Made by a program: the position numbers and the translations under genes
Source: Lactobacillus sp.
Lineage (GTDB): Bacteria > Bacillota > Bacilli > Lactobacillales > Lactobacillaceae
NCBI GenBank assembly: GCA_022484695.1
Contig: JAKVKU010000007.1
Location: 124,001-188,000 of the forward strand
Length of the DNA stretch: 64,000 nt
Reading direction: 5' to 3'
Part shown: positions 3,450 to 4,895 of the stretch, piece after piece
How positions within the stretch are numbered: position 1 is the stretch's first letter
Layout: each line of letters begins with the position of its first letter
The notes under the pieces: model-generated
The model's database searches: none
What the model was told of the DNA's origin: nothing
The model's input: only the letters and a program-made list of their open reading frames with translations

Positions 3450-4409
3450 AAAATTGTAGTTTTAGATGGTCATGGCTTAAATCCCGGCGACTTAGACTGG
3501 GGAATTTTTGAAAAATTTGGTGAGGTGACGGTTTATGACCGGACCTCTTATGATGATCCCCAAGAGATTTTGCGACGGATCGGGGATGCAGAGATTGTAC
3601 TGGATAACAAAGTACCTCTGGATAAAAAGATTTTAGCAAAGCTCCCCAAAGTACGCTACATCGGCGTCACAGCGACGGGCTATAACATTATTGATTTAGC
3701 CGCGGCTAAAGCCCAAGGCATCACGGTGACCAATATCCCGGCTTATGGTACCTATGCGGTGGCCCAGTTTACGTTTGCGTTATTATTGGAAATTGCCAAT
3801 CAAGTGGGCTTACATAACGATGCCGTCCATGCTGGCGAATGGGCCAGCAGTCCGGACTTTACGTTTTGGAAACGGTCGTTGATAGAGCTCAGTGGTAAGA
3901 CCATGGGGTTAGTGGGCTATGGGCGCATTGCCCAAGCCGTGGCCGGTATCGCTTTGGCCATGGGGATGAAAGTGATTTTTTACAATCACCGTCCTAAAAC
4001 CGACCTACCCGCTGGGGTGACCCAGGTGGACTTGGACACGTTATACGCCCAAGCAGACATCATCAGCCTGCATGTGCCACAAACGCCCGAAACCACGGCA
4101 ATGATCAATCAAACTGCCATCCAAAAAATGCAGGATGGCGTTATCCTTATCAATACGGCCCGGGGTGGTTTAATAGACGAGCAGGCCGTGGCTGATGCCT
4201 TAAATACCGGCAAAATTTATGCCGCTGGTGTGGATGTGGTCTCGGAGGAACCTATTCTGCCGGACAATCCGTTGTTGCAAGCCAAAAATTGTTACATTAC
4301 ACCACACATTGCTTGGGCGCCAACCGAAACCCGCCAACGCCTGTTGGATATTGCGTTGGATAATTTGGACAATTATTTAAAAGAGACACCTAGGAATGTG
4401 GTCTCCTGA
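3450..4409 (+). CDS. D-2-hydroxyacid dehydrogenase
   Basis: GLVGYGRIAQ Rossmann motif, NTARGGLIDE, ITPHIAW; likely GTG start at 3450 (VKIVVLDGHG). Confidence 0.88.
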   Translation, partial: KIVVLDGHGLNPGDLDWGIFEKFGEVTVYDRTSYDDPQEILRRIGDAEIVLDNKVPLDKKILAKLPKVRYIGVTATGYNIIDLAAAKAQGITVTNIPAYGTYAVAQFTFALLLEIANQVGLHNDAVHAGEWASSPDFTFWKRSLIELSGKTMGLVGYGRIAQAVAGIALAMGMKVIFYNHRPKTDLPAGVTQVDLDTLYAQADIISLHVPQTPETTAMINQTAIQKMQDGVILINTARGGLIDEQAVADALNTGKIYAAGVDVVSEEPILPDNPLLQAKNCYITPHIAWAPTETRQRLLDIALDNLDNYLKETPRNVVS

Positions 4410-4413
4410 AGGA

Positions 4414-4460
4414 CAGACAACTCAAAAAACAGCGTATAATGACCACGCTGTTTTTTGAGT
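4414..4460 (+). terminator. Rho-independent terminator
   Basis: Long inverted repeat CAACTCAAAAAACAGCG...CGCTGTTTTTTGAGTTG. Confidence 0.85.
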
Positions 4461-4663
4461 TGTTATTCTATTGGATTTTTCTTTGGATGGACAGAGGGTA
4501 ACCAAAAGTGCGAACCGGTGTTGATCATAGATATCCCGAGACATTCGCACCAAATAATTGGTTTTATAATCAAAAAACATGACAATATTAGCTTAAATAA
4601 GTTAAAATATAGATAAGCTACTAGATTTAGTTGTGTTAATGTTAAGCTAACTATATCTAGGGG

Positions 4664-4895
4664 GTCGCAACTCTTGCAGTTGCGTGAATTGAAATTGTTC
4701 CATACATTCGATTTTATCGGGATTGATATAGGTCGCAACTCTTGCAGTTGCGTGAATTGAAATCTAAATAATTATCCAGATTGTCCAACGCAATATCATC
4801 GCAACTCTTGTAGTTGCGTGAATTGAAATAGTTGGGGCCCACGCGATATGGGGTGTAATGTAAGTCGCAACTCTTGAAGCTGCGTAAATCGAGGC
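4664..4895 (+). CRISPR. Short CRISPR array, type I-C-like repeat GTCGCAACTCTTGCAGTTGCGTGAATTGAAAT, 4 repeats and 3 spacers; no adjacent cas genes
   Basis: Repeats at 4664-4695, 4732-4763, 4798-4829 (2 differences) and 4864-4895 (degenerate terminal repeat); spacers of 36, 34 and 34 nt; AT-rich leader-like sequence to the left; repeat length and GTCGC...ATTGAAAT ends typical of I-C. Confidence 0.88.

What the first reader, a model, noticed from the sequence alone, without database searches (positions are those of the whole stretch)
4292..4895. Orphan type I-C CRISPR array whose spacers 2 and 3 both match the adjacent D-2-hydroxyacid dehydrogenase gene
Spacer 2 (4764-4797), reverse-complemented, is GATATTGCGTTGGACAATCTGGATAATTATTTAG. 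It aligns without gaps to 4347-4380 at 30/34. Spacer 3 (4830-4863), reverse-complemented, is TTACATTACACCCCATATCGCGTGGGCCCCAACT. It aligns to 4292-4325 at 28/34. Every difference inside a complete codon is synonymous: spacer 2 encodes DIALDNLDNYL and spacer 3 encodes YITPHIAWAPT, as in the resident gene. The one other mismatch is the last base of the spacer 2 alignment. Both spacers lie in the same orientation, from protospacers 21 bp apart. The spacers were therefore most likely taken from an orthologous coding sequence in a related bacterium or plasmid. Alternatively, they were taken from self and the target was later replaced by a diverged allele. A housekeeping-type gene hit twice, next to the array itself, is unusual. 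crRNAs from the array would be antisense to the dehydrogenase mRNA.
Basis: partly seen in the sequence, partly recalled or inferred. Interest (0 to 1): 0.9.

Follow-up and report, generated by a model that had tools for sequence, protein, structure and literature searches.

The report
CRISPR spacers copied from neighbouring gene
Two of the three memory slots of a small CRISPR array in an Agrilactobacillus bacterium hold pieces of an older or sister-species version of the ordinary metabolic gene beside the array, probably an accidental self- or kin-derived memory that the present gene version escapes.

Summary
The array is at 4664-4895 (4 repeats, 3 spacers). Spacers 2 and 3 match the adjacent D-2-hydroxyacid dehydrogenase gene at 30/34 and 28/34. 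None of 1,134 spacers in 24 other type I-C arrays of the family matches its flanks above 73%. No phage, plasmid or IMG/VR match was found.

The array is an orphan only locally. The genome has an intact type I-C operon on another contig, whose array has a homologous leader and the same repeat 3' end. The sister species A. composti has an array at the same place with unrelated spacers and no type I-C Cas7 or Cas8c.

The composti allele fits the spacers better (32/34, 31/34), and both protospacers there have the type I-C PAM 5'-TTC. In the resident gene, protospacer 2 has lost the PAM, and protospacer 3 has two seed mismatches. Own and composti genes are about 95% identical, except in the last ~180 bp, which hold both protospacers (84%). 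The resident allele is the outlier there; the spacers sit at ordinary species distance from composti.

Best reading: CRISPR-proximal acquisition from an Agrilactobacillus copy of this locus, more likely the lineage's own former allele, later replaced locally (escape). DNA from a sister lineage is the close rival.

The parts
3441..4409 (+). D-2-hydroxyacid dehydrogenase gene, source-locus homologue of spacers 2 and 3; 96% aa to A. composti
   Evidence: ORF; NCBIfam; orthologs
4221..4420 (+). Locally diverged tract of the resident gene (84% to A. composti against ~95% in the rest of the gene), enclosing both protospacers
4292..4325 (-). Protospacer 3 in the resident gene, 28/34, TTC PAM at 4328-4326 (minus strand), mismatches at spacer positions 1, 7, 13, 16, 19, 22
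4347..4380 (-). Protospacer 2 in the resident gene, 30/34, PAM position reads CTT (TTC in A. composti), mismatches at spacer positions 1, 11, 16, 20
4464..4663 (+). Leader of array B, homologous to the leader of the cas-linked array A on contig C5, with inverted repeat GTGCGAA-N29-TTCGCAC at 4508-4550 and ATATCT next to repeat 1
4664..4895 (+). CRISPR array B: 4 repeats (GTCGCAACTCTTGCAGTTGCGTGAATTGAAAT), 3 spacers, last repeat degenerate
4696..4731 (+). Spacer 1, newest, origin unknown
4764..4797 (+). Spacer 2, from an Agrilactobacillus dehydrogenase allele (DIALDNLDNYL + G..)
4830..4863 (+). Spacer 3, oldest, from the same allele (YITPHIAWAPT)

Best explanation
This is a small second array (array B) of the genome's own type I-C CRISPR system, used in trans. 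Spacers 2 and 3 were taken from an Agrilactobacillus chromosomal copy of the gene immediately upstream of the array, not from a phage or plasmid. This is the kind of CRISPR-proximal acquisition seen in E. coli, Pyrococcus and mating Haloferax. The favoured source is the lineage's own former allele. The first event would be a naive capture (s3) and the second a neighbouring, perhaps primed, capture (s2), both next to TTC PAMs. The lineage then survived because a short tract at the 3' end of the gene (about 4221-4420) was replaced by a diverged allele that removed the s2 PAM and mismatched both seeds. The array now spares the resident gene and should still recognise composti-like alleles through spacer 2. 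Shown: matches, PAM states, intact cas genes, leader homology, local divergence. Inferred: former-self source, order of events, cause of the tract, crRNA activity.
For: Two of three spacers match the flanking gene, against 0 of 1,134 spacers in 24 other type I-C arrays of the family. The A. composti allele matches 32/34 and 31/34, with 5'-TTC flush at both protospacers; the type I-C PAM, 5'-GAA downstream (equal to TTC on the other strand), and seed positions 1-5, 7 and 8 are given in PMC5071653. Over the 68 protospacer sites, own vs composti differ at 11, own vs spacers at 10, composti vs spacers at 5; the genome-typical own vs composti difference is 4.2 per 68. The resident gene is therefore the outlier and the spacers look like an ordinary allele of the locus. 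The 60-codon window at 4221 has 30 differences, and only 1.1% of windows over 110 kb have 29 or more; the exact 68-site pattern is in the top 3%. The resident s2 PAM reads CTT, and s3 has seed mismatches at positions 1 and 7. The cas4-1-2-5-8c-7-3 genes are intact on C5. Leaders A and B align over ~200 bp and the repeat 3' ends are identical. None of array A's 25 spacers or the composti spacers gives a significant match to genus chromosomes, so kin DNA is not sampled generally. Acquisition hotspots next to CRISPR loci are described in PMC10011333 and PMC7521656.
Against: No strain with the exact source allele was found, so self versus kin source is not settled. The spacers carry two states (4319 C, 4361 C) found in neither own nor composti. 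The local divergence is only a 1-3% tail event and could be coincidence. Outgroups do not polarise the own/composti differences. No expression or interference data exist, and use of array B by the C5 operon is inferred. Flank-matching spacers are absent in other family arrays, so any self-acquisition hotspot rarely leaves survivors.
Confidence: 0.48

Rival explanations
1. Kin DNA: s2 and s3 were taken from chromosomal DNA of a sister Agrilactobacillus lineage that entered the cell by conjugation, transformation or transduction. The array then acts as a barrier against that allele. The diverged tract of the resident gene is an unrelated introgression.
For: The spacers are nearer to A. composti than to the resident gene (5 against 10 differences in 68) with perfect PAMs there. 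Chromosomal spacers from related species are documented in archaea (PMC3285040). In Haloferax mating most spacers came from near the CRISPR loci (PMC7521656), which would also explain the adjacency.
Against: The distance to composti (7.4%) is that of a different species, not of a composti strain, so a third, unsampled lineage is needed. None of the ~30 other spacers in this genus that were checked gives a significant match to a congener chromosome. The coincidence of the resident anomaly with the protospacers is left unexplained.
Confidence: 0.36
2. Fossil self-spacers: s2 and s3 were captured from self long ago, when no interference-competent cas operon was present, and the gene then drifted synonymously. 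The tract was not replaced; it merely diverged.
For: The spacers sit near the middle of the own/composti/spacer triple (branches 8, 3 and 2), as an ancestral sequence would. A. composti shows that array B can persist without type I-C Cas7 and Cas8c.
Against: The two spacer-unique states are both synonymous and must then be parallel changes or lucky spacer mutations. Own divergence is locally high. Capture still needs Cas1-Cas2.
Confidence: 0.12
3. Regulatory array: crRNAs from s2 and s3 act on the dehydrogenase gene or mRNA to tune its expression.
For: Both spacers lie in the same orientation, antisense to the mRNA, next to the gene.
Against: Type I-C acts on DNA. Resident protospacer 2 lacks the PAM and both have a mismatch at seed position 1. 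The differences show no selection for matching the resident gene. The composti array at the same site has no such spacers.
Confidence: 0.02
4. Mobile element source: a plasmid or phage carrying a dehydrogenase homologue was the invader.
For: Homologues of this dehydrogenase occur on lactococcal and lactobacillar plasmids.
Against: Most plasmid copies are ~55% identical at protein level, none of the listed copies is close, and neither spacer has a credible plasmid or phage match. There was no hit in IMG/VR. The origin next to the array would be a coincidence.
Confidence: 0.02

Closest known systems
Type I-C CRISPR-Cas (Cas3, Cas5c, Cas8c, Cas7, Cas4, Cas1, Cas2)
   Same: Repeat length and 3' end (GTGAATTGAAAT), 34-36 bp spacers, TTC PAM in the sister allele, leader homologous to that of the cas-linked array
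   Different: Array B has no cas genes nearby, a different repeat stem, and only 3 spacers
Self-targeting spacers (reviewed in PMC6990116; Ligilactobacillus salivarius survey PMC11288051)
   Same: Spacers match a chromosomal gene of the host, and the target is protected by PAM or seed changes
   Different: Here the match is imperfect with only synonymous differences in complete codons, doubled, and next to the array itself
CRISPR-proximal acquisition hotspots (E. coli, P. furiosus; cited in PMC10011333 and PMC7521656)
   Same: New spacers come from DNA next to the CRISPR locus
   Different: Known from deep sequencing in laboratory cultures; here they are fixed in a natural genome, and no equivalent was seen in 24 other family arrays
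Spacers against chromosomes of related species (archaea: PMC3285040; Haloferax mating)
   Same: Spacers fit a sister species' housekeeping gene better than the own one
   Different: Bacterial case; source allele not found

Membership tests
Type I-C CRISPR array | Direct repeats of ~32 bp with a short hairpin and GAATTGAAA(T/C) 3' end, separated by 34-36 bp spacers | tested here: met
Type I-C CRISPR array | Type I-C cas genes in the genome | tested here: met
   Cas4, Cas1c, Cas2, Cas5c, Cas8c, Cas7, Cas3 on C5, Cas1c, Cas5c, Cas8c and Cas7 over NCBIfam cut-offs
Type I-C CRISPR array | Leader shared with the cas-linked array | tested here: met
   Leaders A and B align, with the same inverted repeat at the same distance
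Type I-C CRISPR array | Protospacers with 5'-TTC PAM | tested here: met
   Both in A. composti; s3 only in the resident gene
Type I-C CRISPR array | crRNAs made and loaded | not testable with these tools
   needs small RNA sequencing
Self-targeting spacer | Match to own chromosome outside the array | tested here: met
   30/34 and 28/34
Self-targeting spacer | Target competent for interference (PAM and seed) | tested here: not met
   s2 PAM CTT and position 1 mismatch; s3 seed mismatches 1 and 7
Spacer from sister-species chromosome | Near-perfect match in a sister genome | tested here: inconclusive
   32/34 and 31/34 in A. composti, not perfect; no other lineage available

The most novel reading that the evidence does not exclude
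The two spacers preserve the lineage's former allele of the gene next to the array. Survival after self-capture selected for replacement of a ~200 bp tract of that gene by a diverged allele, so that a CRISPR accident drove a local allele swap and created an allele-specific barrier to DNA from sister strains.
Probability: 0.35. Interest if true: 0.7.

Novelty: new member of a known kind. Interest (0 to 1): 0.5.

Why it matters
Array-proximal spacer capture is known from laboratory deep sequencing, but its evolutionary outcome is rarely visible because self-capture is usually lethal. This locus gives a natural example in which PAM and seed states, the sister allele and a local divergence tract can be read together. 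It makes testable whether CRISPR autoimmunity or kin DNA uptake can drive allele replacement and strain-level barriers to recombination in bacteria.

Tried and rejected
Phage, plasmid and IMG/VR sources for all three spacers: no credible match. A viral-contig scan for the dehydrogenase: nothing. Better ortholog sources across 401 Lactobacillaceae genomes: one other spacer-3 match came out, 29/34 in a distant ortholog whose own s2 site does not match, which reflects conserved codons. Spacers of array A and of A. composti against genus chromosomes: no significant match outside arrays; one 31-bp partial match of array A spacer 14 to an A. composti gene lacks a PAM and is at chance level. Polarising own/composti differences with distant orthologs: uninformative. 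Protein homologue search for a third Agrilactobacillus allele: none visible, nearest others 68-69%.

Full report
What is there. The window is contig C7:124001-188000 of a 3.34 Mb Agrilactobacillus genome; the nearest named relative is A. composti DSM 18527, whose dehydrogenase is 96% identical in protein. The array has four repeats at 4664, 4732, 4798 and 4864, and three spacers. Spacer 2 matches 4347-4380 at 30/34 and spacer 3 matches 4292-4325 at 28/34, both on the minus strand. All nine differences in complete codons are synonymous, which under random spacer decay would have a probability near 7e-7. As a control, 1,134 spacers from 24 other type I-C arrays of the family were compared with 5 to 140 kb of sequence around their own array; the best match was 24/33.

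Not an orphan in the genome. Contig C5 carries cas4, cas1, cas2, cas5c, cas8c, cas7 and cas3, all open and assigned by NCBIfam, followed by a 26-repeat array A. The repeats of A and B share the 5' GTCGCA and the 3' TGCGTGAATTGAAAT, and differ in the stem while keeping it paired. Their leaders align over about 200 bp, with an inverted repeat GTGCGAA-N29-TTCGCAC at the same distance from the first repeat. Array B is most likely a second array used in trans. A. composti has an array B at the same place with six other spacers but no Cas7 or Cas8c of type I-C.

PAM and seed. The type I-C PAM is GAA downstream on the opposite strand, that is TTC upstream, and the seed is positions 1-5, 7 and 8 (PMC5071653). 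In A. composti both protospacers are preceded by TTC, flush with the spacer; mismatches are at 9 and 20 (s2) and at 7, 25 and 31 (s3). In the resident gene the s2 PAM reads CTT and s2 mismatches at 1, 11, 16 and 20; s3 keeps TTC but mismatches at 1, 7, 13, 16, 19 and 22. The resident is predicted to be spared, while the composti allele is a predicted target of spacer 2.

Which allele was captured. At the 68 protospacer sites, own and composti differ at 11, own and spacers at 10, composti and spacers at 5; eight states are own-only, three composti-only and two spacer-only. Own and composti genes are about 95% identical except in the last ~180 bp, where they are 84% identical. Over 110 kb of synteny only 1.1% of 60-codon windows are that divergent, and 3% of equally shaped site sets reach 11 differences. 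So the resident gene is the outlier precisely where it is matched by the spacers, and the spacers differ from composti by an ordinary interspecies distance (5 against an expected 4.2). This fits a former allele of this lineage that has since been replaced locally. It also fits a third lineage, with the anomaly being a coincidence of a few percent. Distant orthologs cannot polarise the differences.

Why next to the array. Hotspots of acquisition near CRISPR loci are reported for E. coli (PMC10011333), and PMC7521656 cites the same for P. furiosus and for mating Haloferax. This makes the adjacency expected under proximal capture, whether from self or from a mating partner. The other spacers of this genus that could be checked gave no significant match to a congener chromosome, so general sampling of kin DNA is not evident.

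Verdict. Well supported: spacers from an Agrilactobacillus copy of this very locus rather than from a known mobile element (about 0.95). Favoured but open: former self with local allele replacement (0.48) over kin DNA (0.36). The phenomenon belongs to known kinds (self- or kin-derived spacers), and this is an unusually readable natural case.

Noticed in passing
window 4508-4550; L100 15482-15524; L001 7065-7107: A conserved inverted repeat GTGCGAA-N29-TTCGCAC sits about 115-155 bp upstream of the first repeat in type I-C leaders A and B and in A. composti, and a similar one occurs in L113 of another genus; it may be a leader or regulator binding site.
   Followed up: partly
L001 7220-7615: A. 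composti keeps a syntenic type I-C-like array with six spacers although its genome shows no type I-C Cas7 or Cas8c.
   Followed up: partly
L001 about 7690-8040: A. composti has about 350 bp of extra sequence after the terminator downstream of the array, absent from this window.
   Followed up: no
L101 2229-3417 and 11934-12580: Another Agrilactobacillus genome (G003) has a type I-C operon flanked by two arrays pointing in opposite directions, plus a separate second CRISPR system (L104).
   Followed up: no
window 11413-15090: A large open frame (1225 aa) that looks like a respiratory nitrate reductase alpha subunit, near molybdopterin genes and a two-component regulator, which is unusual in a lactobacillus.
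   Followed up: no
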